Both the position numbers and the translations under genes were made by a program. Below, piece after piece: positions 14,201-61,870 of a DNA stretch of 64,000 nucleotides. Numbering within the stretch: the first letter of the stretch is position 1; the number at the start of each line of letters is the position of its first letter. This stretch comes from Marinibacterium sp. (GTDB lineage Bacteria > Pseudomonadota > Alphaproteobacteria > Rhodobacterales > Rhodobacteraceae), in contig JAEPNQ010000010.1 of assembly GCA_017643305.1 (NCBI GenBank), forward strand, positions 1-64,000. Direction: 5' to 3'. The notes below the pieces were generated by a model. The model did no database searches and was not told the DNA's origin. It was given only the letters and a program-made list of their open reading frames with translations.

Positions 14201-14802
14201 GCGAATTCCTGCGGGATCAGGAAGCGAATATCTCTTACGTGGATGCCGCGGCCGGCGAAGCGCTGGCCTTCGCCTTGGCGGATCCTGCCTGCTACAAGGG
14301 CACGGCCATCCAGTCCCTGAAATCCGATCTCTATGGGCTGAAAGACCGCGTAGAGCTGACCGTACTTGAAGAACGCAAAGCCGTGATCGCGGCGGTAGAG
14401 GACTGCGCGGCCAAGGTGACGCAGACCCCAGAGTTCCAGGTGCTGTCGGCAGACGACCAAGCCCACATCAAGCGTAACATCGACAGCCACAAATCGGGGC
14501 TTGATAGCGTGAAGATGATCCCGATTCTGCGCGATCGGGCGAATGGTGCGAAGCTAGACCTGTTGCCGCGCATTTTGGCAGAGGTTGAGCGACTGAACCG
14601 ACCGGTCGTCGATCCGAAACTTGTCCCGCCCGGGCCGCCGCAGCCAGAGCCGCCGCAGACCACTTACGTCAACGCCTCTGAAATCAAGGTGAGCTTCTCC
14701 AAGCCATACCTGACCGAAGAGTCTGACGTCGAACAATACGTCCAAGAAATGAAAAAGACCCTGCTGGAGCAGATCCGCGCGGGCAAGAAGGTGATCGTCT
14801 GA
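11284..14802 (+). CDS. brxC: BrxC, BREX P-loop ATPase (DUF499-like)
   Basis: 1172 residues, the usual BrxC size. The Walker A motif GFFGSGKS lies at about residues 66-73 and a Walker B-like strand NFFVDEVGQYI near residue 255. Long helical regions follow, then a Pro-rich segment (PPGPPQPEPPQ) before the last 50 residues. BrxC is the large AAA-type ATPase of BREX, required for both defence and host methylation. It starts 4 bases after brxB and its stop shares a base with the pglX start (TGATG). Confidence 0.95.
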   Translation: MTTALRNIFAKPVDRPIDGVIKADDEASLRIELDEYVITDEIGKRLETFLDAYNNYDTANGVWISGFFGSGKSHLLKMLALLMENREVDGTRAFDIFEEKMTDQPMLLGALRKAVSVPSKSILFNIDQKADVISKTDVDALLSVFQKVFDEACGYYGKLPHIAQFERDLDDRGQLAAFKDAYAAAAGKPWERGREQAALERKNIATAFASVTGGDPADAADILGQYRADTRVSIEDFANKVKAWIDKQAPKFRLNFFVDEVGQYIAENVKLMTNLQTIAESLNTKCKGQAWVIVTSQQDMEAIIGDGKAFQSQDFSKIMARFGVKMPLNSADVAEVIQRRLLSKTDEGQVRLGNLHDREENNLKTLFDFTDGSIKLKNFDGRAHFVSSYPFPPYQYMLFQMAITSLSQHNAFEGKHSSVGERSMLGVFQEVAKKMADQPVGGLATFDLMFEGIRTALKSAVQQSIQIAEKEIQDIDPFAVRVLKALFLVKYVKEFKPTVRNISVLLLSEFDTDQVKQRRKIEEALSFLERNTLIQRNGEVYEFLTNEEKDVEAEIKALDVDPSELSKEMETLAFDTILRHRKIKHLTTGNEYSFSRKLDDHLLGREYELSINVISPFNDDVASPEAVRMRNMSREELAVVLQPDVRFIRDLTLFKQTDKFIRQARAGSQQPGRDRIVAEKGDQNSRRSKDLELRLRKLMAEARMFVRGDELDIGGEEPQDRIVKGFQGLVDKVYVNLPMLRGVTYAEADILKAATPESGLFGNNGEGLTEAEQDVLNYVQSQARNGVKVSVKYLTERFGGKPYGWPTTAILCLAASLSGKGKLEARSDGTVLERAELAKALNNSHALANILLTPQTEFTSAQIRKAKELYKELFDLPSDGTDARTIGAEWLESTRTLSEDLGKMLAQKAQYPFVVALEPLATKIAAMVGKPATWYITEPAAQEDDLLDAKEEVLDKIRSFMGGAQREIYDDAREFLRDQEANISYVDAAAGEALAFALADPACYKGTAIQSLKSDLYGLKDRVELTVLEERKAVIAAVEDCAAKVTQTPEFQVLSADDQAHIKRNIDSHKSGLDSVKMIPILRDRANGAKLDLLPRILAEVERLNRPVVDPKLVPPGPPQPEPPQTTYVNASEIKVSFSKPYLTEESDVEQYVQEMKKTLLEQIRAGKKVIV

Positions 14803-17800
14803 TGGACACAAACGCGCTGAAGAAATTTGCCCAGGCTGCTCGCAATCTGCTTATCGATCAGGTCCGCTCGAAGCTAGATCTGGTGCTTGATCCTGCCTCG
14901 CCAGCGCGGCGGGAACACCCTCAGGCGATGAAAGAGCTCGACGCCGCGATCGCGCGGGATGGGAGGGCGCAGGTGATCGAGCAGGTGGCCTATACCTGGT
15001 TCAACCGCTTCACAGCGCTCCGTTTCATGGATGTGAATGGCTACACGGCTGTCGGGGTTGTTTCACCGGCCGAGGGTCAGACGCGGCCCGAGATCTTGGC
15101 CGAGGCGATGGCGGGCAACTTGCCCGAGGGCGCGCCGGGCAGCATCGCAGCGCTGCTTGATGGTCGTACACCTTCGTCCGACCCCCAGGGAGAGGCTTAT
15201 CGTCAGCTTTTGGTGCATGCCTGCAACCAGTGGCACGCCCCCATGCCGTTCCTGTTCGAGGAACTGGACGACTACACCGAACTGCTGATGCCCGAGGATC
15301 TGCTGTCGCAGACCTCCATCCTTGCCGAACTGCGCAAGGTCATGACCATCGAGGCCTGTCAGGACGTCGAGATCATCGGCTGGCTCTATCAGTTCTACAT
15401 CTCGGAGAAGAAGGACCTGGTCTTCGCAGGCCTCAAGAAGAACCAGAAGATCACGGCCGAGAACATCCCGGCCGCGACGCAGCTGTTCACCCCGCACTGG
15501 ATCGTCCGCTATCTGGTGGAGAACTCGCTGGGGCGGCTGTGGCTGCTGAACCGGCCCCAAAGCCGTCTGGCCGAGCGGATGGATTACTACATCGCGCCGG
15601 AGGAGCCCGAGACGGATTTCTTGGCGGTAGCCCGCCCCGAAGACATCCGCATCTGCGATCCCGCCGCCGGGTCGGGCCACATGCTGACCTATGCCTTCGA
15701 CCTGCTCTACGCCATCTATGAGGAAGAGGGCTATGACGCGACCGAAATCCCCGCGCTGATCCTGACGCACAACCTGACGGGCGTGGAGATTGACGACCGC
15801 GCGGGAGCGCTGGCAGCCTTTGCGCTGATGATGAAAGCGGCGTCGCGGCTCGGGCGGCGGCGGTTTTTGCGGATGGAGGCAAAGCCCGACATCTGCGTGT
15901 TGCAGAACGTGAGCTTTACGGGCGCCGAGATGCAGGACGTGGCCGCCGTGGTGGGCCAGGATCTGTTCACTGACGAGCTGCGCGAGACCCTGGGCCAGTT
16001 CGAGCAGGCCAAAAACTTCGGCTCGCTGATCGTGCCGGAGCTGCGCGACCCGGCCGAGACGCTGCGGGTGGTCGAGGCGCGGGATTTTGGCGGTGACCTG
16101 CTGCTGAAAGAGGTGCAGGAGCGTGTCATCGCCGTGCTGCGCATGGCCGAGGCGCTGTCGCCGAAGTATCATGTGGTGGTGGCCAACCCGCCCTACATGG
16201 GCAGCAAGGGCATGAACGGGAAGCTCGCGGATTTCATCAAGGGTACCTACCCACTGGCTTGTGCCGACTTAATGACGTGCTTCATGGAAAAAGCGGATTC
16301 CATGACCTTGCACAACGGGTACTGGTCCATGATTAATCTTCCTTCGTGGATGTTCATTCAATCTTTCGCCAAACTCCGTCAGCGGCTGTTGGGAGAAGTT
16401 CAATTCCTATCCTTAATCCATCTAGGCAGAGGCGTTTTTGGTGCGGATTTTGGTGCGGTAGCTTTTTCCATGCGAAAACCCAAAAGAAAGGAAGTTGCTC
16501 CAATCTGGAAGGGAATTTATCGCAGGCTGTTCGAGAAATCTTCAATTGTTCGCGATGCTGAAGAAATTGAGAGGTTATTTTTTGATGCCAACTATGGGCA
16601 TTTTGAAGTAGAGCAATCCCGATTTCAAAGTATCCCCGATGCCCCGATATCTTACTGGGCGCCAGAAGCGGTCTTTGAGTGCTTTAGAGGCGATGAGGTT
16701 TCAGACTATCTTGATGTGTGCGCCGGTCTCACGACTGGCGACACCGAGCGCTTCCTTAGGCAATGGCATGAAGTCGAGACCTCAAAATTCTCAAAGGGCT
16801 TGGATCGTGTTCCCGACACTTCAACTTTCATTCCTTATGATAAAGGAGGTTCGTTTCGGAAGTGGTATGGAAACAATGAGTATTCTCTGTGGTATTGCGA
16901 GCCCGCATTTTCCGAAATGAAGGCAAAGAAGGGTCACCGACCAGACGGTTTAGAAAGATTTTTTCGCCCAAGTATTACGTGGTCAAAAATCACAATATCG
17001 TCGTTCAGTGCCAGATACAGCCCTGAAAGCAACGGTTTCGATGCAACCTCAAGCTCTGCATTTGGCTCGAAAGAAGACATAGAGAAGGTCATACTGCTTC
17101 TTAACTCTGCGCTTGGAAACTACATTTTGAATTTGCTGAATTCGACGATGGTTTATCTACCGAGGGATATAAAACACTTCCCAATTAGCAATGCAGTTTG
17201 GCAATCTCAATTTGATTTTTCTAAGAAGTTTGGCGCGCTGGTGGGAATGACAAAATCCGACTGGGACGCCTACGAGACCTCTTGGGACTTCACCACCCTT
17301 CCGCTGCTCTCACCCGACCACCGCGCCGATACGCTGGAGGCCACCTATACCTGCCTGCGCGCCCATTGGCAGGGTATGACGGACGAGATGCAGCGGCTGG
17401 AGGAAGAGAACAACCGCATTTTCGTCGACGCCTACGGCCTGCAAGACGAGCTGACCCCCGAGGTCCCGATCGAGGAAATCACCCTCACCTGCAACCCTGC
17501 CTATCGCTATGGCGTGAAGGGCTCCGAGGACGACCGCGAAACCCGCCTGCGCGCCGACACCATGGCCGAGTTCCTCAGCTATGCCGTGGGCTGCATGTTC
17601 GGGCGCTACAGCCTCGACGCGCCGGGCCTGATCCTCGCCAACCAAGGCGAGCGGTTGGAGGATTACCTCGCCGGTATTCCCAAGCCGAGCTTCATGCCGG
17701 ACGAAGACAACGTCATCCCCGTGCTGGACGGTGACTGGTTCCCCGACGACATCACCGAACGCTTCCGCCTGTTCCTGCGCGTGACCTTCGGCGAGGCGCA

Positions 17801-18287
17801 TTTCCGGGAGAACCTGCGCTATGTCGAGGAGGCCCTCGGCAAGGACATCCGCAAGTATTTCACCAAGGATTTCTACTCCGACCATGTAAAGCGCTACAAG
17901 AAGCGCCCGATCTACTGGATGTTCTCGAGCCCCAAGGGCACGTTCAACGCCCTGATCTACATGCACCGCTACCGGCCCGACACCGTCTCGGTGCTGCTGA
18001 ACGACTATCTGCGCGAGTTCATCAGCAAGCTTGAGGGCGAACGTGGGCGTCTGGAGAAGCTGTCCGATGACCCAAGCGCCAGCCAGGGCCAGCGTACCAA
18101 GGCGCTGAAGGACATGGCCGTCATCGCCAAGCAGATCGACGAGCTGAACGAGTGGGAACGCGATGTCGTCTTCCCGCTGGCGCAGGCCAAGATCGAGATC
18201 GACCTCGATGACGGGGTAAAGGCGAACTATCCGAAATTCGGCGAAGCGCTGAAGAAGATTCCTGGGCTGGAGGCGAAGGATGACTGA
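14802..18287 (+). CDS. pglX: PglX, BREX adenine-specific DNA methyltransferase
   Basis: 1161 residues. The SAM-binding motif I is CDPAAGSGHMLTYAF (D286) and the catalytic motif IV is NPPY (residues 462-465), as in gamma-type N6-adenine methyltransferases. PglX methylates the BREX site in the host genome and, through its specificity domain, sets which phage DNA is recognised. From about 16.25 to 17.27 kb, after NPPY, the DNA is clearly AT-richer than the flanks, although the reading frame stays open. This region would include the target-recognition domain. It overlaps pglZ by 8 bases. Confidence 0.96.
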   Translation: MDTNALKKFAQAARNLLIDQVRSKLDLVLDPASPARREHPQAMKELDAAIARDGRAQVIEQVAYTWFNRFTALRFMDVNGYTAVGVVSPAEGQTRPEILAEAMAGNLPEGAPGSIAALLDGRTPSSDPQGEAYRQLLVHACNQWHAPMPFLFEELDDYTELLMPEDLLSQTSILAELRKVMTIEACQDVEIIGWLYQFYISEKKDLVFAGLKKNQKITAENIPAATQLFTPHWIVRYLVENSLGRLWLLNRPQSRLAERMDYYIAPEEPETDFLAVARPEDIRICDPAAGSGHMLTYAFDLLYAIYEEEGYDATEIPALILTHNLTGVEIDDRAGALAAFALMMKAASRLGRRRFLRMEAKPDICVLQNVSFTGAEMQDVAAVVGQDLFTDELRETLGQFEQAKNFGSLIVPELRDPAETLRVVEARDFGGDLLLKEVQERVIAVLRMAEALSPKYHVVVANPPYMGSKGMNGKLADFIKGTYPLACADLMTCFMEKADSMTLHNGYWSMINLPSWMFIQSFAKLRQRLLGEVQFLSLIHLGRGVFGADFGAVAFSMRKPKRKEVAPIWKGIYRRLFEKSSIVRDAEEIERLFFDANYGHFEVEQSRFQSIPDAPISYWAPEAVFECFRGDEVSDYLDVCAGLTTGDTERFLRQWHEVETSKFSKGLDRVPDTSTFIPYDKGGSFRKWYGNNEYSLWYCEPAFSEMKAKKGHRPDGLERFFRPSITWSKITISSFSARYSPESNGFDATSSSAFGSKEDIEKVILLLNSALGNYILNLLNSTMVYLPRDIKHFPISNAVWQSQFDFSKKFGALVGMTKSDWDAYETSWDFTTLPLLSPDHRADTLEATYTCLRAHWQGMTDEMQRLEEENNRIFVDAYGLQDELTPEVPIEEITLTCNPAYRYGVKGSEDDRETRLRADTMAEFLSYAVGCMFGRYSLDAPGLILANQGERLEDYLAGIPKPSFMPDEDNVIPVLDGDWFPDDITERFRLFLRVTFGEAHFRENLRYVEEALGKDIRKYFTKDFYSDHVKRYKKRPIYWMFSSPKGTFNALIYMHRYRPDTVSVLLNDYLREFISKLEGERGRLEKLSDDPSASQGQRTKALKDMAVIAKQIDELNEWERDVVFPLAQAKIEIDLDDGVKANYPKFGEALKKIPGLEAKDD

Positions 18288-20781
18288 CCGGATCACCGCC
18301 AGCCTGGAACGCCTCTTTGACGAGAATCGCATCGTCTTCTGGTATGACGCCGCACGCGACATGCGGGGGGAGTTCGATGCCGTCGATCTGGCTGGGGTGA
18401 CGAAGGTGGAGATCGCGAACAACCAGTTCGGGTTAAAGCACCGGATGCTGCGGCAGGAGCCGAAAACGAAGTTTTTGGTGTTCCATGATGGGCCAGAGCC
18501 TGGGAATGCGGCGAACTGGCTGCTGGATCTGCAATTGGCAACGGCGGTGTTCAAGGCGGATCAAGCTGGGATCTGGTTGGGTGAGTTGGGCCTGCCGCCA
18601 CAGTTCGAAAGCGTCGTGCGCGATCACATGGAGTTTTACCGCTCCAAAGCGCGTGTGGCTGAGCTGAAACGCCTTTTGCATGCTGCAGACACGCAGTCCC
18701 AGGTGCGGCTGCGCATGCTGGCCGTCTGTGTCGGCGCAGAAGGGGGGCTTGATACAATTGTTGAGGCTCTCATGGGCGAATTAGCCGAGGGCCGCGACGA
18801 TGCCATGCGGCTGATCGAGCGGTCTGGTCTGACCGAGGTGTTCTGGAAGCAGGTCGGCAATGCCTATGGCTACCAGCCCGGCCAGCCCGATCTTGAGGAT
18901 TTCGCGATCGCACTTTTTCAGTCGGCTTATCTGCGGGCGCTGGGCGAAGATGGCAAGCTGAACGCTGAGGCACTTCTGGTGTTCCGGCGCTGGAAGAACA
19001 ACCGCCACTGGGAACAGGCGTTTGAGACGCTTGCTGCACGCTATCAGGGCTTGCTGAAAATCCCAGAGGATTTGTCGAAGCGTGACTTCCGTACGGTCAT
19101 GGCCGTCGACCATTTTGAGGAAATCGACCGCCACATCATCCGGCAGTTGGTGCATGCGATGTCGACCCAAACCGTCAGCGCATCTGAGGTGCTGAAATGG
19201 GTGCGCGAGCGCCGCCAGAGCCATTGGTATGGGACCTACGAGGATATCTATCAGGCGATCGGCTTTGCCACTGAATTCCAGCAGGCGCTTGCCGAGGCTA
19301 ATCTCGGGATGACGAGCCCTGCCGAAGGGGTGAAGCGCTATGTCAGCAGCTGGTACAAGCTCGACCAGCTCTATCGCAAATTCATCTACCATATGCAGCG
19401 CAGTGGTCATGCATCGCTGCTCTCGGAACTCTACGAGGCGGTGGAGAACCGGTATACTAATAGCTTCCTCTTGAAGCTGAATGACGCCTGGCAGGATCAG
19501 GTTGCTGGACTGAGCGACTGGACAATCCCCGGATACGCTCGCCAGAGCGCCTTCTACGTCGAACAGGCCGCAGAGTTCCGCCGTCGAGATCAGAAGGTCG
19601 TGGTCATTGTCTCGGATGCCCTGCGCTTCGAGGTGGCCGAGGAATGCCTGCGTCGGATCCGAGCACTGAACCGGTTTGATGCGGAGCTGAAGCCCATGAT
19701 TAGCGCGCTACCCAGCTATACACAGCTCGGGATGGCGGCACTTTTGCCGAACCGGGAACTCTCTTTCGCATCTGACGGCGGCGGATCGGTACTTTCGGGG
19801 GACGAGAGCACTCAGGGCCTTGCCGCGCGCGAGAAGCTTTTGGCAACAGGACGTGTAGGCGACCGCGCGAAGGCTCTGTCCGCACGCGATGTGCTCGATA
19901 TGCGGGTCGATGAGGGCAAAGAGCTCTTCCGCGACAATGACGTGGTTTACATCTATCACAACCTGATCGATGCGATTGGCGACAAGCTGCAGACTGAAGA
20001 TCAGCTGCCCAAGGCGGCAGAAGACGCGATTGAAGAACTCACCAAGCTTGTTCGGAAGCTGACGTCGGCGAATTTCTCAAACATCCTTATCACGGCAGAT
20101 CACGGTTTCCTTTACCAGCACCGATCGCTTGATGAGAGCGACTTCGCTGTTGCTGATCCCAAGGGCGATGAAATCCTGCTTCGTAATCGGCGCTTCGTTA
20201 TAGGTCGAGGCCTCGAAGAAACCGCGGGCATGAAGAAGTTCAGCTCAGCCAATCTTGGCTTGGCGGGTGACCTCGATGTCCTGATCCCAAACTCGATAAA
20301 CCGCCTGCGCGTCAAAGGGGCGGGGAGCCGGTATGTGCACGGCGGCGCGTCGCTGCAGGAAATCGTCGTCCCGGTCATCCGTGTCGGCAAGCAGCGCGAA
20401 GCGGATGTGAACCAGGTCGAAGTGCAGATCATTGTGTCGGGCCGCAGCCAGATCACGTCTGGGCAAACGGCAGTCATTTTTTACCAAGCGCAACCGGTCT
20501 CCGAGAAGATGCAGGCGCGCGAGCTGGTCGCAGGGATCTACGCTGCTGATGAAACGCTGATTTCAGACGAGCATGTCCTGCAGTTCGATTTTACCTCCGA
20601 GAACGCCCGTGAGCGCGAAATGCCCCGGAAGTTCCTGCTGTCGCGTGAGGCGGACAAATTCAATAACCAAGACGTATTCCTGAAACTGCGCGAGCGGGTG
20701 GGTAAGACAAGCCACTATCAGGACTACACAAGCCATCGCTTCCAGTTGAAACGTGGCATCACAACAGATTTTGACTTTTGA
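18280..20781 (+). CDS. pglZ: PglZ, BREX alkaline-phosphatase-superfamily protein
   Basis: 833 residues. The alkaline-phosphatase-fold core shows metal-binding segments VVVIVSDALRFEVAEE (D446) and ITADHGFLYQHRS (D607, H608). The N-terminal half is the helical PglZ-specific region. PglZ proteins bind metal and have been reported to act as phosphodiesterases. They are essential for BREX. The stop TGA at 20779 overlaps the ribosome-binding site of brxL. Confidence 0.95.
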   Translation: MTDRITASLERLFDENRIVFWYDAARDMRGEFDAVDLAGVTKVEIANNQFGLKHRMLRQEPKTKFLVFHDGPEPGNAANWLLDLQLATAVFKADQAGIWLGELGLPPQFESVVRDHMEFYRSKARVAELKRLLHAADTQSQVRLRMLAVCVGAEGGLDTIVEALMGELAEGRDDAMRLIERSGLTEVFWKQVGNAYGYQPGQPDLEDFAIALFQSAYLRALGEDGKLNAEALLVFRRWKNNRHWEQAFETLAARYQGLLKIPEDLSKRDFRTVMAVDHFEEIDRHIIRQLVHAMSTQTVSASEVLKWVRERRQSHWYGTYEDIYQAIGFATEFQQALAEANLGMTSPAEGVKRYVSSWYKLDQLYRKFIYHMQRSGHASLLSELYEAVENRYTNSFLLKLNDAWQDQVAGLSDWTIPGYARQSAFYVEQAAEFRRRDQKVVVIVSDALRFEVAEECLRRIRALNRFDAELKPMISALPSYTQLGMAALLPNRELSFASDGGGSVLSGDESTQGLAAREKLLATGRVGDRAKALSARDVLDMRVDEGKELFRDNDVVYIYHNLIDAIGDKLQTEDQLPKAAEDAIEELTKLVRKLTSANFSNILITADHGFLYQHRSLDESDFAVADPKGDEILLRNRRFVIGRGLEETAGMKKFSSANLGLAGDLDVLIPNSINRLRVKGAGSRYVHGGASLQEIVVPVIRVGKQREADVNQVEVQIIVSGRSQITSGQTAVIFYQAQPVSEKMQARELVAGIYAADETLISDEHVLQFDFTSENAREREMPRKFLLSREADKFNNQDVFLKLRERVGKTSHYQDYTSHRFQLKRGITTDFDF

Positions 20782-20792
20782 GGAGCGGGCCC

Positions 20793-22901
20793 ATGAGTGA
20801 TCTCGACGCCAGGATCAATGAACATTTCGCGGGCTTTGTTGTACGCAAGGACCTGGTGAAGGCGGTCAAGGGCAACGCGATCGTTCCGACCTATGTGCTC
20901 GAGTATCTCTTGGGTCAGTATTGCGCCACCGACGACGAGGCATCGATCGCGACTGGCATCGAGACCGTCAAAGAAATCCTGCGCAAGCATTATGTCCACC
21001 GCAGCGAAGCGGGGCTCATCCAGTCAACGATCAAGGAAAAGGGCCGCTACAAGGTCATTGACCAGATCAGCGTGTCGTTGAACGAGAAGACCGACAGCTA
21101 TGAGGCCACCTTTGACAATCTCGGCATCAAGAAGGTTGCAGTCGACAGCGGCACAATTAAAGCGCACCCGAAGCTGCTCGTGACGGGCGTCTGGTGCATC
21201 GCGGATGTTCAGTATGAGTATTCCGAGGATGCGCGCACTTCTCCTTGGATCTTGGAGACCATCAAACCCATCCAGATCGCCAAGGTCGACTATGAGGGCT
21301 ACCGAGAGGCGCGGAGCAACTTTGGCACGGACGATTGGATCGATCTACTGATGCAGAGCATCGGGTTCAACCCGGAGGCCTTTGGGCGTCGGGCGAAGCT
21401 CTTGCAGCTGATGCGCCTGATCCCCTTCGTGGAACGGAACTATAACATCATCGAGCTTGGCCCCAAGGGGACGGGCAAGTCGCACATCTATTCGGAGTTT
21501 TCGCCGCATGGTCAGCTGATTTCGGGTGGCGAGGTGACGATCCCGAAGCTCTTCGTGAACAACTCGAACGGGCGCATTGGCCTTGTCGGCTACTGGGATG
21601 TCGTGGCCTTTGATGAATTCGCCGGTCGAGAGAAGACAGCGAACAAGGCGCTGGTCGACATCATGAAAAACTATATGGCCAACAAGACCTTCTCCCGGGG
21701 GGTGAACCCGATGGGGGCCGAGGCCAGTTTCGCGTTTGTGGGCAACACCGACCACAACGTGCCCTTCATGCTGAAAAACAGCGACCTATTTGAAGCCCTG
21801 CCGCCGCAGTTCCATGACTCGGCCTTCATCGACCGCCTGCATGCCTATCTGCCCGGCTGGGAAATCGACGTGATCCGCGGCGAGATGTTCACAAAGGGAT
21901 ATGGCTTCATCGTCGACTACCTAGCCGAGATCCTGCGCCACCTGCGCCAAGAAGATTTCTCGCACCGGCCTGATCAGCATTTCAAAATCAGCGAGAAGAT
22001 TTCGACACGGGATCGGGACGCGATCTACAAGACGATGTCTGGCCTGCTGAAGCTGATCTTCCCGAATGGCGGCGAGACGGCCGAGGATGTCGAAGAACTG
22101 CTGCGCCTAGCCATGGAGAGCCGCAAGCGCGTCAAAGATCAGTTGGCCCGTATCGACAGCACCTATCCCGAGGTCGATTTCCACTACCTTGGCACGGACG
22201 GAACCAAGCGCCGTGTGACCACGGTCGAGGAGGAAGAATACCCGCAGTTCTATCACCTCAAGCCTGCGCTGGATCCCAAGGAGCAGGAACAGTCAGAGAC
22301 GTCAGCTGGTGCTGGTGAGCCCGCGTCTGCCGGTAACGAAGAGACATCGACGTCAGGGCCCGCTTCCGAGGCTGGGCGCCCGATCAAAGCAGAGGCAAAG
22401 CCCGTTCTCGAAGAAGGCCATCATGTCTTCACCGAGGATCGCAAAGGGATCAGCTACGAACGGCTCTTCGGTCCTTACATCGAAGGCGCCTCAAAGATCA
22501 TCGTGACAGACCCCTATGTCCGATACTTCTATCAAATCCGAAACATGATGGAATTCGTTGAAATGGTTATCCGGCGGAAATCGCCTGAGGACCAGGTCAG
22601 CGTTCACCTCGTCACAGGGCCAGACGATGGCAATGTCGGCAAACAGCGCGAGCTGCTGGATTCTATCGTGGACGCCTGTGTTGGCTCGGGCGTTGAATTC
22701 ACATGGGCTTTCGATGGCACAGGAACAGCGCACGCGCGCGACATCGTCACCGATACTGGCTGGAAGATCGTGCTGGATCGCGGTCTCGATATTTTCCAGG
22801 CGCCGATCAAGAAGGACGGGTTTTCGCTCAGTGATCGGTTGCAGGAGCACCGCATCATCAAGGGCTTTTATGTGACCTACGTTCGCGCTGAGCAGGGGTA
22901 A
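20793..22901 (+). CDS. brxL: BrxL, BREX AAA+ protein with MIT_C-like C-terminus
   Basis: 702 residues. I chose the ATG at 20793, behind a GAGGAG ribosome-binding site. The N-terminal part (HFAGFVVRKDLVKAVKG) and AAA+ core (GPKGTGKS near residue 223, FDEFAG Walker B) match type I BrxL, the DNA-binding ring protein required for defence. A low-complexity Ala/Ser/Glu linker at about residues 498-535 leads to a C-terminal domain with SYERLFGPYI, TDPYVRYFYQ, and later an Arg-Asp...Gly-Trp...Arg-Gly-Leu-Asp pattern. That is how I remember the C-terminal PLD-like domain of MITD1. A Lon-type Ser-Lys dyad is not seen. Confidence 0.92.
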   Translation: MSDLDARINEHFAGFVVRKDLVKAVKGNAIVPTYVLEYLLGQYCATDDEASIATGIETVKEILRKHYVHRSEAGLIQSTIKEKGRYKVIDQISVSLNEKTDSYEATFDNLGIKKVAVDSGTIKAHPKLLVTGVWCIADVQYEYSEDARTSPWILETIKPIQIAKVDYEGYREARSNFGTDDWIDLLMQSIGFNPEAFGRRAKLLQLMRLIPFVERNYNIIELGPKGTGKSHIYSEFSPHGQLISGGEVTIPKLFVNNSNGRIGLVGYWDVVAFDEFAGREKTANKALVDIMKNYMANKTFSRGVNPMGAEASFAFVGNTDHNVPFMLKNSDLFEALPPQFHDSAFIDRLHAYLPGWEIDVIRGEMFTKGYGFIVDYLAEILRHLRQEDFSHRPDQHFKISEKISTRDRDAIYKTMSGLLKLIFPNGGETAEDVEELLRLAMESRKRVKDQLARIDSTYPEVDFHYLGTDGTKRRVTTVEEEEYPQFYHLKPALDPKEQEQSETSAGAGEPASAGNEETSTSGPASEAGRPIKAEAKPVLEEGHHVFTEDRKGISYERLFGPYIEGASKIIVTDPYVRYFYQIRNMMEFVEMVIRRKSPEDQVSVHLVTGPDDGNVGKQRELLDSIVDACVGSGVEFTWAFDGTGTAHARDIVTDTGWKIVLDRGLDIFQAPIKKDGFSLSDRLQEHRIIKGFYVTYVRAEQG

Positions 22902-22906
22902 GACGC

Positions 22907-24061
22907 ATGTTCCGCATCGATAAAGACGACAACTCGATCAAGCCACTCAAGGCCCGCAGCTTTTCCGAATTGGGGTTTAAGGAGCGTCAGCACCTGCAGG
23001 AGTGGATCGCCAAGTATCCATCCTGTCTGGGTGAGGACCTGTTGATCATCCAGAAGGAATTCGCTGGCTTTTCCGACACGCAGGAGCGTCTCGACCTTCT
23101 TGCTCTGGATAAGAAGGGCCGTTTGGTCATCATTGAGAATAAGCTTGATGACACCGGCAAGGACGTCACGTGGCAGGCCATGAAATACGCGTCCTACTGC
23201 GCGAGCCTTAAGACCGAAAGCATCTGTGGCATCTATCAGGATCACCTAACAAAGACAGGGCAGCCCGGCGCGGCCAGTGAGCTGATTGCGGATTTTCTGG
23301 AAGTGGCTGATCTGTCGGAGGTTACGCTCAATCGCGGCGTGTCGCAACGGATCATGCTGATTGCTGCGAATTTCCGGAAAGAGGTGACCTCGACCGTTCT
23401 ATGGTTGATGAACTTCAAGCTGCAGGTTCAGTGCTTCAAGGTCACGCCGTGGGCGATGGCTGACGATCTCTTCCTGAACGTTGAGCAGATCATCCCTGTG
23501 AAGGATACACAGGACTTCGTGATTGGCCTGGCAGACAAGGCCCAGGACGAAGTGCAAACCTCTTCCGCGGAGGCCGCACGCAATACCATTCGTCGTGAGT
23601 TCTGGGGCGAAGTGATCCGCGTCATGCAGACGAAGTCGCGCCTCTACGACAATATTTCCGCCGGAGTCGCCAATTGGATCGGCGCTGGGTCTGGCATGCG
23701 TGGCGTTGGCTTCAATTTCGCCGCGGCGGGCAAGTATGGGCGCGCGGAGATTTATATCGATCGGGGCGAGCAGGCCGAGAACAAGTATGTCTTCGATCAG
23801 CTGCTCGCCCAGCGCGAAGCCCTTGAGGCGGCGTTTGGTGGGCCGCTGGTATGGGAGCGCCTCGATCATCGACGTGCGTGTCGGATCAAATGCGAGACCG
23901 AAGCCGATATGTTCGAGCGTGAGGACTGGCCGCGCATGATAGAGTTCATGACGGATGCGATGGTGCGAATTGAAAAGGCATTTCGCGATCCGCTGCAGAA
24001 ATTGAATGCCGATGTCCGATCACGCACGTTCGAGCCGGAGGCTGGTGGGGACGGTTCGTGA
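22907..24061 (+). CDS. DUF4268 protein with PD-(D/E)XK nuclease core
   Basis: 384 residues. The N-terminal domain shows a PD-(D/E)XK pattern: D63 in ERLDLLALD, E77 and K79 in LVIIENKLD, then WQAMKYASYC, as in NucS/RecB-like nucleases. The C-terminal half fits DUF4268 (TIRREFWGEVIRVMQTK, then MRGVGFNFAAAGKYGRAEIY). It lies five bases after brxL and its stop overlaps the next gene (GTGA), so it belongs to the BREX transcript. I infer a DNA-targeting accessory nuclease of the BREX locus. Activity is not shown by the sequence alone. Confidence 0.8.
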   Translation: MFRIDKDDNSIKPLKARSFSELGFKERQHLQEWIAKYPSCLGEDLLIIQKEFAGFSDTQERLDLLALDKKGRLVIIENKLDDTGKDVTWQAMKYASYCASLKTESICGIYQDHLTKTGQPGAASELIADFLEVADLSEVTLNRGVSQRIMLIAANFRKEVTSTVLWLMNFKLQVQCFKVTPWAMADDLFLNVEQIIPVKDTQDFVIGLADKAQDEVQTSSAEAARNTIRREFWGEVIRVMQTKSRLYDNISAGVANWIGAGSGMRGVGFNFAAAGKYGRAEIYIDRGEQAENKYVFDQLLAQREALEAAFGGPLVWERLDHRRACRIKCETEADMFEREDWPRMIEFMTDAMVRIEKAFRDPLQKLNADVRSRTFEPEAGGDGS

Positions 24062-25193: not shown

Positions 25194-25274
25194 ATGAAAG
25201 GAGCGCTGCAGTTCTGCGTTTGGTTTGTTATCGCGTTCTTCGCGGTGCATGGTTTCATCGATCTGGTCTTTTGA
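25194..25274 (+). CDS. Possible 26-residue membrane peptide
   Basis: A short reading frame, MKGALQFCVWFVIAFFAVHG followed by FIDLVF, forms a single hydrophobic helix. GGAG precedes the ATG by a few bases. Its end overlaps the 3' end of the convergent radical SAM gene. It could be a tiny membrane protein or the chance product of a GC-rich junction. I keep it at low confidence. Confidence 0.3.
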   Translation: MKGALQFCVWFVIAFFAVHGFIDLVF

Positions 25275-26481
25275 TCTCGCGCACCACCATCCCCGTCAAA
25301 TGCCATAAGGCCGCCATCATGATCCCCATATTGAACGCAAACTCGTTGGCGCAGGACTGCTTGAAGAAGTCCCCCTCGAGGAACATGCAGGACCCCTTGC
25401 AAAGCTGAACGACGGGACAGGACATGCACTCGTCCCGGAAGGCAAAATGCGTCGCGGTATCGAGCGCGATGGCGTCGAAGTCGGCGACATGACCGATCTT
25501 GTGCGCCCCCTTCGCACCGGTGTTTTGACAAGTCATGGCATTGCCGCGCAGGTCGACGGCGATGGCGTCGGGGCTGTCCATGCCGCATTTCTGGCCTAGG
25601 GCCTCAATGGGCCGCTGACGCTGGATCGAGGCATAGAACTCGTCGATCCGCTCACCGAGGCCAAAAGCGTTCGGGTCCTCAACCAGAACTTCGAAGATCG
25701 AGCGCGTCAGGCTGTTCAACTCCGCGGACTCGAACCGCCCGGTCCCGATGGCGGTCGCGGCGTCATAGACATTCACGACGCCCTCGAGCCCGACGAAGAT
25801 GTCCGGTCCGACCTTTTCAGCGAACCAGGCCTTAAGGGCCCGAAGGTCGTGATTCTGGCGCGTCAGCACCGCATTGAACCCGGTCTTTTCGGGACGCTCG
25901 GCCAACAGGGTTTGGATCCAGTGGCTCTTGTCAGGATCGTCGAACGGATCCGGCCCGCGCAGATGCTGACCCGGCCCATCATGCGAGATGGTTATGGCGA
26001 TGTCGTGGGCGGCAATGAAGTCGATCCTTTCTCGATTGAAGAGCGAACCATTCGTGATGATCGAAAAGCCGGCACTCGGGAACCGCGCGGCCAGCGCAGG
26101 GATCAGCCGCTTGATTTTGGCCCAGTAAAGAAATGGTTCGCCGCCCCAGAGCTCGATCTTTTCCGGGGCTTGCGCGATCCAACCGTCAAGCTCAGTCAGG
26201 AAGTGCTCCACATCGGCCAGCTTCGAAACTGTCGCGTCAGCGATCTGGAAGGCCTGGCTGCAATAGCTGCAGGCGTAGTTGCACGAGAGCCCGAGTTGGA
26301 TTTTCAGCACGCGCGGCGCGCGGGATTTGCCAAGCGGTTTGTCTTTGGCCACGCGCGGCACTGGCGCAAATATCCCCGGTTCGACCGGCAGCGGCAGCCC
26401 CTCGCATTCGGAGGTGTGGGGGTTGTAGCTCACGTGGTGGCGGCTGCCGTCACGCGCTTCCAGGGTCAGATCGAACCACAT
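25255..26481 (-). CDS. Radical SAM/SPASM peptide-maturase-like enzyme
   Basis: 408 residues. The radical SAM cluster motif is CNYACSYC (C67, C71, C74), followed by the GGEP motif at 113-116. The C-terminal SPASM domain fits the seven-cysteine rule exactly: C299-x13-G-x4-C318, then C352-x2-C355-x5-C361-x3-C365, then C377. Such enzymes hold two extra [4Fe-4S] clusters and install cross-links or other changes in ribosomal peptides, or activate sulfatases. No sulfatase is near. It is the last gene of the phage late operon, overlapping the 2OG oxygenase gene as ATGA, two genes after the Cys-rich peptide. I infer that this peptide or a tail protein is the substrate. Confidence 0.9.
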   Translation of the reverse strand: MWFDLTLEARDGSRHHVSYNPHTSECEGLPLPVEPGIFAPVPRVAKDKPLGKSRAPRVLKIQLGLSCNYACSYCSQAFQIADATVSKLADVEHFLTELDGWIAQAPEKIELWGGEPFLYWAKIKRLIPALAARFPSAGFSIITNGSLFNRERIDFIAAHDIAITISHDGPGQHLRGPDPFDDPDKSHWIQTLLAERPEKTGFNAVLTRQNHDLRALKAWFAEKVGPDIFVGLEGVVNVYDAATAIGTGRFESAELNSLTRSIFEVLVEDPNAFGLGERIDEFYASIQRQRPIEALGQKCGMDSPDAIAVDLRGNAMTCQNTGAKGAHKIGHVADFDAIALDTATHFAFRDECMSCPVVQLCKGSCMFLEGDFFKQSCANEFAFNMGIMMAALWHLTGMVVREIKRPDR

Positions 26482-27113
26482 CAGTCAAACAGCCTTTCGT
26501 CGATTGCGGTGGGCAGGGTGACGCGGAAGTTCGCGACGACCTGCACATGCGGCACTCTTCCCTCGTAGGGGTGCTGGTTGTGGGGAATATGAGAGGGGAA
26601 GAAGACCGAGAGCCCCGGCCGCGGGTTGACTGAATAGCCGTGACGGCTCTCATGGGGCAGTCGCCCCTCATCGAAGTACCGCGACGGATCCTCGATCACG
26701 AAGCGCGGGGTGCCAACACTGTTCACCGGCTGGCCCGCCCCACTGCCGGTCAGGAAGTGGACGCAGGTCAGGTCGCCCTCGCGGCTGTCCTTGTGGGTTG
26801 AGATGAAGCCACCAGGCTCAATGACGAGGGCACGGTTTTCGCAATGATCGGAGTCGAGATATCGAGCCCAGGGGCCGAGGACGGCACGCGCGCAAGCAAA
26901 GAGATGGGCCTTCAGCGCTTGACCGGCTTCGCTCCGCTCAAGAATGCCACGCACCCGGCGTTTGGCAGCGCTCAGCTGACTGGCGCCGCCATCTCCGCCA
27001 ACCGCTGCCATGGCCTCATCCGCGAGCTGGCGATTGACCTCCCAGTCCACCGGAGCCTCAAAAAAACTGACATGGGTGGGCCAGAGCGCAAGGTTTGTCT
27101 GCTGCACTTCCAT
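26481..27113 (-). CDS. 2OG-Fe(II) oxygenase, second copy
   Basis: 210 residues from the ATG at 27113, two bases after the stop of the Cys-rich peptide gene. The jelly-roll iron site is visible: H107-x-D109 in FISTHKDSREGD and distal H178 in PSHIPHNQHPYEG, with basic residues R186 and R197 as candidates for 2-oxoglutarate binding. The layout (H..., GTPRFVIEDPSRYF, PGLSVFFPSHIPH) fits prolyl/aspartyl-hydroxylase-like phage oxygenases. It would hydroxylate a protein or peptide. It is placed between the Cys-rich peptide and the radical SAM gene. Confidence 0.85.
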   Translation of the reverse strand: MEVQQTNLALWPTHVSFFEAPVDWEVNRQLADEAMAAVGGDGGASQLSAAKRRVRGILERSEAGQALKAHLFACARAVLGPWARYLDSDHCENRALVIEPGGFISTHKDSREGDLTCVHFLTGSGAGQPVNSVGTPRFVIEDPSRYFDEGRLPHESRHGYSVNPRPGLSVFFPSHIPHNQHPYEGRVPHVQVVANFRVTLPTAIDERLFD

Positions 27114-27115
27114 CG

Positions 27116-27409
27116 TCAGCACCGGCAGGCGCAGTTGCAATTGAAGTAAGCACGGTTTGCCGTAACGGAAACTGCCCCTGTGATTCCACCTCCCGAGAGG
27201 CTGGCGACATAACAATTGGCTGTGCAATTGCAGTTGCCGCCTCCGCTGCCGCTGACGGCTGTAAAAGGCGATCCCGTTGAGGGAGTGCCGTTAGCGACAG
27301 TGACGGCGGTGATGTCACCGGTGCCAATCGCTGGCTTGTTGGCGATACGAGACCAATCCACAAAGCCGCTGTCGTCGATCACGATCGTTGTTCCGACCTT
27401 ATAGGCCAT
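27116..27409 (-). CDS. 97-residue tail-fibre-like peptide with Cys-rich C-terminus
   Basis: The ATG at 27409 follows a perfect ribosome-binding site (AAGGAGG, 6 bases before). Residues 1-50 look like a phage fibre adaptor: IVIDDSGFVDWSRIANKPAI is the familiar D-W-[ST]-R-I-x-x-K-P phrase. A Gly/Ser linker leads to NCNCTANC (C60, C62, C66), a GGGITGAV turn, and the terminal YFNCNCACRC (C91, C93, C95, C97). Seven cysteines lie in the last 38 residues and the last residue is Cys. It overlaps the upstream oxygenase gene by 11 bases. I infer a substrate for the flanking enzymes, with the fibre part acting as leader or anchor. Metal binding is the main alternative. Confidence 0.8.
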   Translation of the reverse strand: MAYKVGTTIVIDDSGFVDWSRIANKPAIGTGDITAVTVANGTPSTGSPFTAVSGSGGGNCNCTANCYVASLSGGGITGAVSVTANRAYFNCNCACRC

Positions 27410-28142
27410 GGCTGCCTCCTTGCGCCTGATGGGCCAGGATCTCGGAGAGACCGGCCGTGCAGTGGGAATTAGGGAGATCGAGGGAGCATAGGACCGGAAT
27501 ACACATCCGTTCCTCGCCATCGAAATAGGTGCTGTCGTGGGGCACATGCCCTTCAAAGACCAGCATCGAGCCCGTGCGCGGCTCGACCGCATACCAGCCG
27601 CCGACATAGGCGTCCGGGTTGTTGCAAGGCCAGAGCCGCTTGCCGACATTGGCTGGATCATAAAACCGCACCGCCCCGCGATGGAGCGAGGTCTCGGGGC
27701 AATCCACGTCCAATACAACACGCGGGTAATAGGTGCAGACGATGTCGGTCTGGACATGGGTGTGGGTGTTGATGCCGACGTTTTCCCGTGCGGCACGCCG
27801 CTGCCAGAACGTGTCCGACATCATGGCGATCTCGCCGGTATGATCATATCCGTAAGCCAACTGCAGGTATTCCCGCACGGCTGCCGCCACCATCTGCGCC
27901 AGAACGGCGATAGCAGGGTCCCGCCGATCCATCAGGAAGTTGTGGCGCAGATGCCCAAGATGGTTGGTCTGATCGCCCACATTGCGCCCGTCGCCCGCAT
28001 CTCGAATACGGTTCGCCACCGCATCCTCAGCCGCCAACGCGTGCAAGCGGTCATTGAAGCCCTCAGGCATCTCCCAGTGCTTGTGCATGACGAAGGCGGG
28101 GTAGATTAGCTGCAACTCAGTCGTGGTCGCGATCTCCATCAC
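27399..28142 (-). CDS. 2OG-Fe(II) oxygenase, first copy
   Basis: 247 residues in the same broad family as the 210-residue neighbour, close to the phage proteins annotated as 2OG-Fe(II) oxygenase (TIGR02466 type). Conserved stretches are NTHTHVQTDIVCTYY (H127, H129), AVRFYDPAN, and SMLVFEGHVPHDSTYFDGEER with distal H202. The first iron ligands read H-x-H-x-Q rather than a plain H-x-D, so the exact metal triad is uncertain. The start overlaps the upstream gene stop as ATGA. Phage oxygenases of this type are often found beside tail-fibre genes, where a role in modifying structural proteins is suspected. Confidence 0.82.
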   Translation of the reverse strand: MMEIATTTELQLIYPAFVMHKHWEMPEGFNDRLHALAAEDAVANRIRDAGDGRNVGDQTNHLGHLRHNFLMDRRDPAIAVLAQMVAAAVREYLQLAYGYDHTGEIAMMSDTFWQRRAARENVGINTHTHVQTDIVCTYYPRVVLDVDCPETSLHRGAVRFYDPANVGKRLWPCNNPDAYVGGWYAVEPRTGSMLVFEGHVPHDSTYFDGEERMCIPVLCSLDLPNSHCTAGLSEILAHQAQGGSHGL

Positions 28143-29046
28143 ACCACCTCTAGGATGATCTTGCCGATCGCGGTGTAGTGCTCGGTGTTGATCTTGACCG
28201 CGATCTGGTCGCCGGTGCTGAGTCCCAGCGCCTCAATGGCAAAACTGCCAACCCCGCTCGCATTTGTCGTCAGCCGCCGCTTCGGCAGATAGCCGGCGTC
28301 ACTGTCGAGTTTCAGTGCAAGCGCGTGTGCGCAGGGCGCGCCATCGCCATTCCAGCGGAGTGCGATGGGCACCTCGGCCCGCCCGCCCGCGGGAACCGAG
28401 AGCACCGCCGGGTCACTTGCCACAGCGTGGAAGTAGAATTGCTTGAACCACTGCCCGTCATTCGGGATCGTCGCGTCATCGACCCGGCCAGCAACGGTGG
28501 TGCCGTTCAGCAGGATCGGGTCCTGATCGCAAAGGATCTCGATCCGGGCCGAGGACAGCGGCCCCTTGATCGGCATGAAGATCACCAGCGCATTCGAGGC
28601 CTGCATGCGCGCACGGTGGCGAAACGACAGGTCGACCTTCTCGCGCGCCGATTGGGCGAAACGATTGCGCCAGGGCTGCGGAAACCCTGCATTGTCGGTC
28701 ATGATGTCGATCAGAGCGTGATCGGTGATTTCATCGTGACCGCGCATCCCGCCCGGGAAGACGTAGGAGCGCCCCTTGTAGATCCCGCCATGCGGGCAGC
28801 CCGGCAGGTCCGGAACGAAGATCCCGTTGCCACGCATATCAACGAAGCCAGCGCCCCGGTCCTGGTCAAAGGGCGTGGCGAGTTCTTCTGAGAGCTCTGC
28901 CCATTCCATGGCACCAACACTATTGCGTAGGCCCTCGCCAGCCCCGCAGCGCGCAAAGACGGCAAGCCCGGCGTAGGTGTCCTGGACATCGACGGCGTAA
29001 TGCAGCGGCGTGCCCGTGTTGTAGATGACATGCAGTCCGGTCTCGA

Positions 29047-29050
<4 letters not shown>
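28139..29050 (-). CDS. Phage appendage protein of unknown family
   Basis: 303 residues with no family I recognise. The N-terminal half has [19 protein letters not shown] and [20 protein letters not shown]. The last 130 residues look like two beta-sandwich (Ig-like) domains ([20 protein letters not shown], then [18 protein letters not shown]). It is translationally coupled to the collagen-like fibre gene upstream and the oxygenase downstream (4-base overlaps on both sides). It is probably a tail or receptor-binding component, and a second possible substrate of the oxygenases. Confidence 0.6.
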
Positions 29051-30225
<1,175 letters not shown>

Positions 30226-30227
30226 GA

Positions 30228-31211
30228 TCAGAAGGTCCCACCGTCAAGGGTGATCCCGTTGATCGACCCACCGGTAATCGCGACATTGCTGGAGGCTTGC
30301 GTGGCCATGGACCCCAGCCCGAGGTTCGAGCGCGCCGTCGCCTTGTTCGGTATATCCGACAGGTTCGATGCTGCGGAAAGCTTGCCAGCTAGCGCATTGG
30401 TCACGGTCGTTGCGAAGTTGGGATCATCGCCGAGGGCTGCGGCCAATTCGTTCAGCGTGTCCATTGCACCTGGAGCGGCATCAATTAGCGCACCGATGGC
30501 GGCGGCGACAAAAGCTGTGGTCGCGATCTGCGTCGTGTTTGTGCCGGCCGTTGCAGTGGGGGCCGTCGGCGATCCTGTCAGTGCAGGCGATGCAAGAGGC
30601 GCCTTTGCATCCAGCGCCGTCTGGAGCCCCGTGATTTGCGCGATCGAATGGCTGTGGCTGGAGGGCGTAAAGCTCGTGGGTTTGCCGGTAATCCCGGCCC
30701 AAGGTGCGGCATCGGCAACCTCTGCGGCATCCACCTTGCCATCGTTGTCCGTGTCATAGGTGGATTTTGCCATGTCGCCCGCGCCAAAGCCGGCAATGGC
30801 GTCATTTACGAAGGCCGTTGTTGCAATCTGTGTTGAGTTCGTGCCCGTGACCGCCGTCGGTGCCGTGGGCGATCCCGTGAAGCTTGGCGACGCCAAGGGT
30901 GCTTTCGTCGACAGCAGACCGTCGACCTGCGACTTGCGAACAAGATCGGTCCCGCTGCTGGCATCTTGTCCAGATTTTGGCACGAGAGAGAAGGTTTTGG
31001 CACCACCAACTGTCTGCGTGCCCACCAGCGCCAGAAAGCCGCCACTCCCGGCTATGGGGACGATGGAGGTTGCATTGCCGCTGCCGTCGTCGCCCTTGCC
31101 GACATAGACCGTGTTGTCGACCTCGTTGTGGGCAAGCTCGCCGGATTTCAGTGCTGCGGGCGCACCCGCCACGCCGGAGACGCGGCGTTTGAGCTGGATC
31201 GTATTGGCCAT
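30228..31211 (-). CDS. Phage tail fibre protein with repeated segments
   Basis: 327 residues beginning [20 protein letters not shown], a common fibre N-terminus, with [14 protein letters not shown] next. Two internal repeats share [15 protein letters not shown] and [10 protein letters not shown] (about residues 105-140 and 205-240), as in long side-fibre proteins of tailed phages. It ends [10 protein letters not shown]. It is likely trimeric and part of the host-binding apparatus. Its ATG shares one base with the stop of the upstream small gene. Confidence 0.85.
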
Positions 31212-61681: not shown

Positions 61682-61870
61682 TAAGCCCGATGGAATTGTA
61701 ATTCGTTGATTAAGCCTAGTGTGGCCCTTTGGACACCGCAAGTGATCAAGTATGAAGCGGGAAGCCTAAGGCTGCGAAAAGACGCAGTATCCCAACGCGG
61801 TAGCGAGGCGGGCGCGCCCCCCTTTCCTGGCGATCCCGCCTAACCGATTATGACGCTTTAGGCTGCCCTT

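What the first reader, a model, noticed from the sequence alone, without database searches (positions are those of the whole stretch)
25255..28142. Candidate phage peptide-maturation system: radical SAM/SPASM plus two 2OG-Fe(II) oxygenases around a Cys-rich tail peptide
Four genes at the end of the late operon are coupled by overlaps or a two-base gap: oxygenase, 97-residue peptide with seven C-terminal cysteines, oxygenase, radical SAM enzyme with a complete seven-Cys SPASM signature. SPASM enzymes are best known for modifying ribosomal peptides, and phage 2OG oxygenases are often found near fibre genes. Their joint placement around one small fibre-like protein suggests that the phage matures a structural appendage by RiPP-like chemistry (cross-links and hydroxylations). 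I know of no described system of this composition. The substrate assignment is inference.
Basis: partly seen in the sequence, partly recalled or inferred. Interest (0 to 1): 0.92.

Follow-up and report, generated by a model that had tools for sequence, protein, structure and literature searches.

The report
Phage tail-tip radical modification module
Many phages carry a radical enzyme next to a fibre-like protein that ends in a chain of alternating asparagines and cysteines, which suggests that these viruses chemically modify the tip of their tail.

Summary
At the end of a siphovirus prophage's tail operon lie, in order, a 303-aa all-beta protein, a 2OG-type oxygenase, a 97-aa protein ending NCNCACRC, a second oxygenase and a radical SAM/SPASM enzyme with all 3+7 cluster cysteines.

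Comparative genomics makes the enzyme–substrate link strong. An IMG/VR scan for NCNCNCxC, blind to the enzyme, gave 66 ORFs with the tract at the C-terminus: 52 have a radical SAM gene within 2.9 kb downstream on the same strand; the other 14 hold 2.4 kb or less of downstream DNA. Conversely, 147 of 186 non-redundant enzyme loci have such a tail within 5 kb, on varied scaffolds. Two isolated Achromobacter phages have it too, with Hint sequence right after the tract.

Tail and N-terminus are the conserved parts of an otherwise variable protein. Asn dominates the first spacers and relaxes at the last, consistent with overlapping N-x-x-C thioethers (NxxcA precedent); that chemistry is inferred. 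The oxygenases are optional: 58 of 147 loci show none by my HMMs.

Ten full-text searches showed me no description of such a virion-protein maturation system.

The parts
25255..26481 (-). Radical SAM/SPASM enzyme, 408 aa (phrog_1802 family; called rSAM1 here)
   Evidence: 3+7 cluster Cys invariant in 26/26 aligned; AlphaFold model pLDDT 91, best match CteB 5wgg Z 23.3
26481..27113 (-). Oxygenase B (2OG-Fe(II)-like), 210 aa from ATG 27113
   Evidence: phrog_81 E 2.4e-5; HxD/E...H...R kept in 8 of 8 aligned
27116..27409 (-). 97-aa protein, inferred short fibre/tip protein: conserved N-terminus, variable middle, Cys tail
   Evidence: 25 relatives compared
27119..27142 (-). Codons of the C-terminal tail NCNCACRC, the inferred site of modification
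   Evidence: conserved; regular partner of rSAM1
27399..28142 (-). Oxygenase A (2OG-FeII_Oxy_5 / TIGR02466-like, below cut-offs), 247 aa
   Evidence: invariant H127, H129, H202, R212 in 8 of 8 aligned
28139..29050 (-). g5: 303-aa all-beta protein with C-terminal Ig-like domain, often between tail protein and rSAM in relatives
   Evidence: model pLDDT 91.7; near full-length matches only to phage proteins without a named function; g5 HMM in 105 of 147 tail loci
29047..30225 (-). Collagen-like tail fibre with S74 chaperone domain (neighbour; possible other substrate of the oxygenases)
   Evidence: Collagen E 1.4e-24, Peptidase_S74 E 9.1e-15
30228..31211 (-). Tail-fibre-like protein (neighbour)
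   Evidence: PHROG tail fibre families

Best explanation
This is a tail-tip maturation module. The phage makes a short fibre/tip protein that ends in an alternating (Asn/Ala/Asp)-Cys tract, and encodes a dedicated radical SAM/SPASM maturase that modifies the cysteine tract after translation, giving a covalently rigidified tip for host contact or membrane approach. Most likely chemistry (inferred, about 0.4 on its own): thioether bonds from Cys sulphur to the beta-carbon of an Asn/Asp three residues upstream. The repeat (NC)n is a ladder of overlapping N-x-x-C motifs, and an Asn20-Cys23 C-beta thioether is known in NxxcA. In other phages a Hint domain, and perhaps the unclassified KI[IV]C domain, follows the tract and might release it as a new C-terminus. 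The oxygenases are accessory and lineage-specific; they may hydroxylate the same protein or the neighbouring collagen-like fibre. Shown by computation: the gene pair, its conservation, the enzyme's intact cluster motifs, conservation of the tail. Inferred: that the protein is in the virion, that the tail is the substrate, the bond type, the role in adsorption.
For: Enzyme-blind scan: 52 of 66 ORFs with C-terminal NCNCNCxC have a radical SAM gene downstream on the same strand, all within 2,878 bases (the nearest is full-length rSAM1 over 250 bits in 41; the rest are fragments, rSAM2 or weaker matches); the 14 others hold 2,430 bases or less downstream; of 39 loci without an in-frame ORF 1 has one on either strand (Fisher p 1e-15 on 52/66 v 1/39, relatedness ignored). 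Enzyme-first: 147 of 186 non-redundant rSAM1 loci have a CxCxC tail ORF within 5 kb on the same strand; opposite-strand control 7/78 and 5/77 against 58/78 and 56/77. 145 scaffolds fall into 26 clusters (30% identity, 50% coverage). In 122 of 147 the longest tract is within 18 residues of the C-terminus; Hint-like sequence follows it in 9 (8 by pattern plus L293 by eye) and a KI[IV]C domain in 8. Six of ten tail proteins tested hit PHROG tail-fibre families. Spacers: Asn 135, 129 and 104 of 147 at positions 1, 2, 3 and 52 of 147 at the last; all 28 Arg are in the last spacer. Best structural match is CteB, a Cys-thioether maturase (Z 23.3), then ChlB 22.8 and anSME 21.1. Two groups of rSAM1 relatives lie in RiPP-like clusters. 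NxxcA and PapB precedents: PMC8326336, PMC9413430 (passages).
Against: No product, mass shift or virion proteome was seen. Ala fills 20% of spacers, so not every Cys can have an Asn/Asp partner at i-3. Sequence score to every curated maturase listed is far below cut-off (best PapB 63.5 v 340 bits). Of 39 loci without a tail, 16 hold under 4.5 kb upstream; of the other 23 entries 15 stay without a tail after inspection, so the enzyme family is not confined to this substrate. g5 or another protein could be the true substrate in some loci. Four of ten tail proteins tested have no tail-fibre PHROG, nor does the window protein. The gap-aware codon count is weaker than the ungapped one (v 73). No N-terminal RRE was recognised.
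Confidence: 0.7

Rival explanations
1. Metal-tip: the CxC repeat is a beta-strand whose cysteines face the axis of a fibre trimer and bind iron or zinc, as HxH repeats do in known spikes and needles (recalled). The radical SAM enzyme acts on something else.
For: Strict alternation puts all Cys on one face of a strand; Cys are the constant residues of the tract.
Against: Does not explain the tight coupling to a radical SAM enzyme with intact cluster motifs, nor the Asn-first spacer asymmetry. A few loci have other spacings (YCSYCTCACSDCSC in L240/L245).
Confidence: 0.12
2. anSME-like chemistry: the enzyme oxidises tail cysteines to formylglycine aldehydes that bond to amines on the host surface.
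For: anSME is among the closest folds (Z 21.1); JWF's copy was deposited as anaerobic sulfatase-maturating enzyme.
Against: Thioether maturase CteB scores higher, though only by about 2 Z units; the tail contains no CxPxR/CxAxR sulfatase motif (motif recalled); Asn preference unexplained.
Confidence: 0.1
3. Epimerisation: the enzyme flips alternate residues to D, making a D/L helix-like tip, as PoyD does at every second residue (PMC8326336, passages).
For: Alternating pattern with Asn at one register; PoyD works in a 1,3 pattern.
Against: Cys, not Asn, is constant; closest folds are thioether and anSME enzymes, EpeE only Z 13.4.
Confidence: 0.08
4. The peptide is a diffusible RiPP (a prophage bacteriocin), not a virion part.
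For: Relatives of the enzyme sit by YcaO and ABC/C39 genes; the window protein itself has no tail-family hit.
Against: In relatives the same tail ends proteins of up to 616 aa, 6 of 10 tested with tail-fibre PHROG hits; no exporter or C39-type peptidase among the seven operon proteins scanned, apart from the S74 chaperone domain of the collagen-like fibre.
Confidence: 0.05

Closest known systems
Ranthipeptide maturases (CteB/SCIFF, PapB/freyrasin, NxxcB/NxxcA)
   Same: SPASM radical SAM fold (CteB Z 23.3) beside a Cys-rich partner; N-x-x-C motif present
   Different: Inferred substrate is the C-terminal tail of a fibre-like protein, with no protease or exporter beside it; sequence far below family cut-offs
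Anaerobic sulfatase maturase (anSME)
   Same: Seven-Cys SPASM, Cys-directed chemistry, structural match Z 21.1
   Different: No sulfatase found in the operon proteins scanned; multi-Cys repeat
phrog_1802 radical SAM proteins, e.g. Achromobacter phage JWF gp30
   Same: Same family (E 1.6e-51); JWF gp28 carries NCNCDCNCNCSC with a Hint match starting at its last Cys
   Different: Annotated only as radical SAM or sulfatase maturase; no g5, oxyA or oxyB relative seen in the JWF stretch; Hint domain present
Radical SAM gene cassettes in the 'HRC' region of pelagimyophages (PMC7029224, passages; HRC taken by me as host-recognition cluster)
   Same: Radical SAM genes reported as added cassettes in a variable region near tail fibres
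   Different: The passages describe no substrate, Cys tail or mechanism; not shown here to be the same family
2OG-Fe(II) oxygenases of cyanophages (PMC3037559, passages)
   Same: Phage-encoded oxygenases, often several per genome
   Different: In the passages seen, discussed with nitrogen/2OG metabolism, not as fibre modification

Membership tests
Radical SAM / SPASM | CX3CX2C cluster motif | tested here: met
   C67, C71, C74 invariant in 26/26
Radical SAM / SPASM | Seven-Cys SPASM signature | tested here: met
   C299, C318, C352, C355, C361, C365, C377 invariant in 26/26; TIGR04085 28.4 v 27 bits
Ranthipeptide/sactipeptide maturases | Score above a curated maturase model | tested here: not met
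   best PapB 63.5 v 340, Nif11 59 v 518.7; best 25 of 54 families shown
Ranthipeptide/sactipeptide maturases | N-terminal RRE domain | tested here: inconclusive
   only about 50 residues with short strands precede the core; the model still aligns with CteB from residue 1
Ranthipeptide/sactipeptide maturases | Thioether in the product | not testable with these tools
   needs mass spectrometry
RiPP biosynthetic cluster | Dedicated protease/exporter with the precursor | tested here: not met
   none among the seven operon proteins scanned except an S74 chaperone domain in the collagen-like fibre; chromosomal relatives do have C39/ABC
RiPP biosynthetic cluster | Leader removed, core released | not testable with these tools
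   no cleavage data; tract within 18 residues of the encoded C-terminus in 122 of 147
2OG-Fe(II) oxygenases (oxyB) | HxD/E...H...R | tested here: met
   H107, D109 (E in L107), H178 and H181, R197 in 8 of 8
2OG-Fe(II) oxygenases (oxyA) | HxD/E...H...R | tested here: inconclusive
   HTH (H127, H129), H202, R212 invariant in 8 of 8; Pfam 24.3 v 27 bits
Anaerobic sulfatase maturase | Sulfatase substrate nearby | tested here: not met
   no sulfatase among the seven operon proteins scanned

The most novel reading that the evidence does not exclude
A widespread class of tailed phages builds the tip of its tail by radical chemistry: SPASM enzymes convert the (Asn-Cys)n C-terminus of fibre proteins into a ladder of overlapping N-x-x-C C-beta thioethers, a covalent needle or adhesin. 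Hint domains, oxygenases and second radical SAM enzymes are lineage-specific add-ons. It would be the first viral structural protein that I know of matured by a radical SAM enzyme.
Probability: 0.35. Interest if true: 0.96.

Novelty: categorically new. Interest (0 to 1): 0.9.

Why it matters
In papers whose passages I saw, radical SAM genes of phages are listed as auxiliary or iron-sulphur metabolism. Here a large family of them is tied to a fibre-like protein by a tight two-way association. If the tail is modified, tailed phages have a covalent chemistry for a part likely to touch the host, which bears on how tips recognise or pierce envelopes, and supplies maturases that act on protein C-termini without a separate precursor peptide. 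The test is simple: two genes co-expressed in E. coli and one intact mass.

Tried and rejected
Rejected: a purely auxiliary-metabolism reading of the enzyme (it does not explain); that the two oxygenases are essential; that g5 alone is the substrate (no g5 hit in JWF, which has a different 240-aa protein). A known domain for the KI[IV]C stretch: no Pfam or NCBIfam hit in the two proteins tested. Single-linkage scaffold clustering at E 1e-4 merged scaffolds into 8 clusters and was replaced by a coverage-filtered one. g5 in PDB gave only Ig-like partial matches. In one search PqqE (6c8v) came at Z 12.1; QhpD and PapB are not in the 50 rows shown, which shows nothing.

rSAM1 counts use an HMM from nine sequences, over 250 bits and 300 aa or longer; shorter fragments were dropped. 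Oxygenase and g5 counts come from small HMMs and are lower bounds. In some searches a radical SAM gene was recognised by HMM or by CX3CX2C plus GGEP/GGDP. The 186 set is clustered by shared 6-mers, not by a tree. Fisher values ignore relatedness. The ungapped codon count was checked with a gap-aware alignment and came out weaker; both are given.

Papers: ten searches answered. Searches found nothing; listings were partial (20 of 23; 15 of 113; 10 of 197). No title or abstract start that I saw described a radical SAM enzyme acting on a virion protein. Nine papers were looked into by passages only. Most subscription papers and all preprints are outside the library.
Full report
WHAT IS THERE. The window is part of a 4.28-Mb genome in 164 contigs; the closest named rSAM1 relatives are in Rhodobacterales such as Thalassovita. 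It holds a siphovirus-type prophage: terminase, portal, protease, capsid, tape measure, J-like central fibre, then fibre genes, all on the minus strand. The last genes are g5 (29050-28139), oxygenase A (28142-27399), the 97-aa protein (27409-27116), oxygenase B (27113-26481) and rSAM1 (26481-25255). That the 97-aa protein is a fibre is inferred from its place and its relatives: it has no significant family hit itself.

CLOSE RELATIVES. rSAM1 found 39 loci in IMG/VR. In 26 of them (L002-L025, L038, L039) the order g5-oxyA-peptide-oxyB-rSAM1 is the same; one (L040) holds only the end of rSAM1; the other 12 are distant. In 25 compared peptides the first 30 residues and the tail are conserved while the middle varies in length and sequence. 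The NCNCTANC-type cysteines of the middle are missing in several, but CxCxCRC at the end is in all 25. Raw N/S codon differences: ungapped 0.33 in the last 8 codons, 4.19 and 2.23 in the blocks before; gap-aware 0.49 in the last 10 columns, 0.79 in the last 8, 1.66 and 2.09 upstream, 0.54 in the first 30. The tail is thus under constraint about as strong as the N-terminus.

THE TAIL PREDICTS THE ENZYME. 39 have no in-frame ORF of 45 aa or more; 15 have the tract more than 12 residues from the C-terminus (3 with, 12 without a radical SAM gene on the same strand; 7 of the 12 are a short KNCNCNCHC/ENCNCNCHC protein family, and 2 of the 12 hold 4 kb or more downstream); 66 have it at the C-terminus. 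Of these 66, 52 have a radical SAM gene on the same strand, in all 52 downstream and within 2,878 bases; the nearest is full-length rSAM1 in 41, and a fragment, rSAM2 or weaker match in 11. The other 14 hold at most 2,430 bases downstream. Of the 39 without an ORF, one has the gene on any strand (L091).

THE ENZYME PREDICTS THE TAIL. Scans with the rSAM1 alignment gave 80 loci each in GTDB genomes and IMG/VR. On the same strand within 5 kb a strict xCxCxC motif occurs in 58 of 78 and 56 of 77 loci with a full rSAM1 ORF, and in 34 of 34 and 45 of 46 of the loci; on the opposite strand in 7, 5, 2 and 7. After removing near-duplicates, 147 of 186 have a tail ORF (135 upstream, 12 downstream). Of the 39 without, 16 hold under 4.5 kb upstream. 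The other 23 entries (most of their loci printed, others seen only): L240 and L245 (four entries) end YCSYCTCACSDCSC; L326 ends CACNC; L206 has what looks like a frame-broken fibre; L292 is cut at the edge; L179 looks degraded. The remaining 15: L187-L190 and L197 have a 766-813-aa ORF directly upstream that is YcaO by Pfam in the two tested (L188, L189); L191 groups with them on the tree but shows no such ORF there; L231 and L248 lie by ABC exporters (with C39 and HlyD in L231); L250, L263, L269, L285, L297, L324 and L329 have no explanation.

MANY SCAFFOLDS, ONE TAIL. The parts before the tract fall into 26 clusters at 30% identity and 50% coverage, 38 at 70% coverage (145 scaffolds). Of ten tail proteins scanned, six hit PHROG tail-fibre families, one only an unknown family, three none. 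The last CxC run holds 3 to 10 Cys, its spacers are Asn 57%, Ala 20%, Asp 13%, Arg 5%. In the longest run Asn is at 135, 129, 104 of 147 at spacers 1-3 and 52 of 147 at the last, where all 28 Arg lie. Over 76 distinct tails Asn is at 28 of 76 last and 210 of 359 earlier spacers (Fisher p 0.0009, relatedness ignored). A link from Asn(i) to Cys(i+3) would leave the last spacer free, which fits; other explanations are possible.

PROCESSING DOMAINS. In 122 of 147 the longest tract is within 18 residues of the C-terminus; Hint-like sequence follows directly in 8 counted by pattern and in L293 by eye; a KI[IV]C domain in 8 by eye. In Achromobacter phage JWF gp28 the tract is residues 297-308 and the Hint match (PF05203 E 3e-12) runs from 308, the last Cys; rSAM gp30 is two genes on. 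Phage 2-1 has the same arrangement by eye. These (three records) are the only ones where one place covers 80% of the window's rSAM1 among 50,697 phage records; tblastn with two distant members found the same three.

THE ENZYME. All 3+7 cluster Cys are invariant in 26 of 26. The model (pLDDT 91.1, pTM 0.89) matches CteB 5wgg (Z 23.3, 353 aligned), ChlB 9gmc (22.8), anSME 4k38 (21.1), TigE (18.8), SuiB (15.3), EpeE (13.4). On a tree of 73 rows (60 of the rSAM1 set, 52 of them drawn at random with a quota, plus 13 rSAM2) tail-bearing enzymes span the rSAM1 side, and the YcaO group and the exporter group sit in two different supported parts of it. This suggests movement between RiPP-like clusters and phages; the direction is not shown. 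rSAM2 accompanies rSAM1 in 7 of 147 loci.

ACCESSORIES. g5 HMM in 105 of 147, any oxygenase HMM in 89 of 147 (58 none, 51 one, 38 two or more). g5 models well (pLDDT 91.7); its best viral matches are uncharacterised phage proteins (top TM 0.85), with only Ig-like partial matches in the PDB.

MECHANISM. Shown: pairing, conservation of the tail, intact cluster motifs. Inferred: the protein is a virion part, the tail is the substrate, Cys is attacked or linked. I favour C-beta thioethers because the repeat is a ladder of N-x-x-C, the bond joins Asn20 and Cys23 in NxxcA and Cys-Asp pairs in freyrasin (PMC8326336, passages), PapB tolerates Cys-Xn-Asp with n 0-6 (PMC9413430, passages), and CteB is the nearest fold. 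Formylglycine, epimerisation and metal binding are kept as rivals. A covalent tip for host contact is a guess from position.

KNOWN OR NEW. Phage radical SAM genes are known (phrog_1802; PMC7029224 reports radical SAM cassettes in a variable region near tail fibres of pelagimyophages, PMC5332604 twelve radical SAM genes in one marine T4-like genome; passages), but nothing I saw in the answered searches names a virion protein as their substrate. The enzyme is a member of a known superfamily; the system, a dedicated radical maturase for viral tail tips, is not a kind I know.

Noticed in passing
window 11284-24061: BREX-type defence genes (BrxC, Eco57I-like methylase, PglZ, BrxL) lie beside the rSAM end of the prophage.
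   Followed up: partly
L187-L190, L197 (Ramlibacter, Variovorax, a gammaproteobacterium); L191: rSAM1 with a YcaO-nitroreductase fusion upstream (Pfam-tested in L188, L189) and a small ORF shared by some (e.g. L189:5768-5977, L190:5711-5926): a possible unstudied RiPP family.
   Followed up: partly
L231, L248 (Sulfuritalea, Sulfuricella): rSAM1 beside ABC exporters (C39 peptidase and HlyD in L231).
   Followed up: partly
L067, L075, L082, L124: Other poly-NC proteins ending e.g. SQCNCNCNCDC or TACNCNCNCNC; in L067, L075 and L082 beside weakly matching, apparently different radical SAM genes.
   Followed up: no
L037:3333-4394, L081, L278, L288, L295, L307, L310, L314, L319: Unclassified KI[IV]C-starting domain directly after the Cys tract; no Pfam or NCBIfam hit in the two tested, L037 and L081.
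   Followed up: partly
L061-L063, L068, L079, L110, L166: Short KNCNCNCHC-type proteins without a radical SAM gene in the held DNA: perhaps an unrelated metal-binding family.
   Followed up: no
L181-L183, L222 (Thalassobacter stenotrophicus); L179, L180 (Thalassobius vesicularis): Several rSAM1 copies in one genome; L179 looks degraded.
   Followed up: no
window 56546-61741: 1731-aa ORF with DEAD/Helicase_C and UvrD helicase domains in one frame in the prophage.
   Followed up: no
L263, L269: rSAM1 relatives in viral contigs without a Cys tail; L263 lies beside a flavin-halogenase-like ORF (named by recall from its sequence).
   Followed up: no
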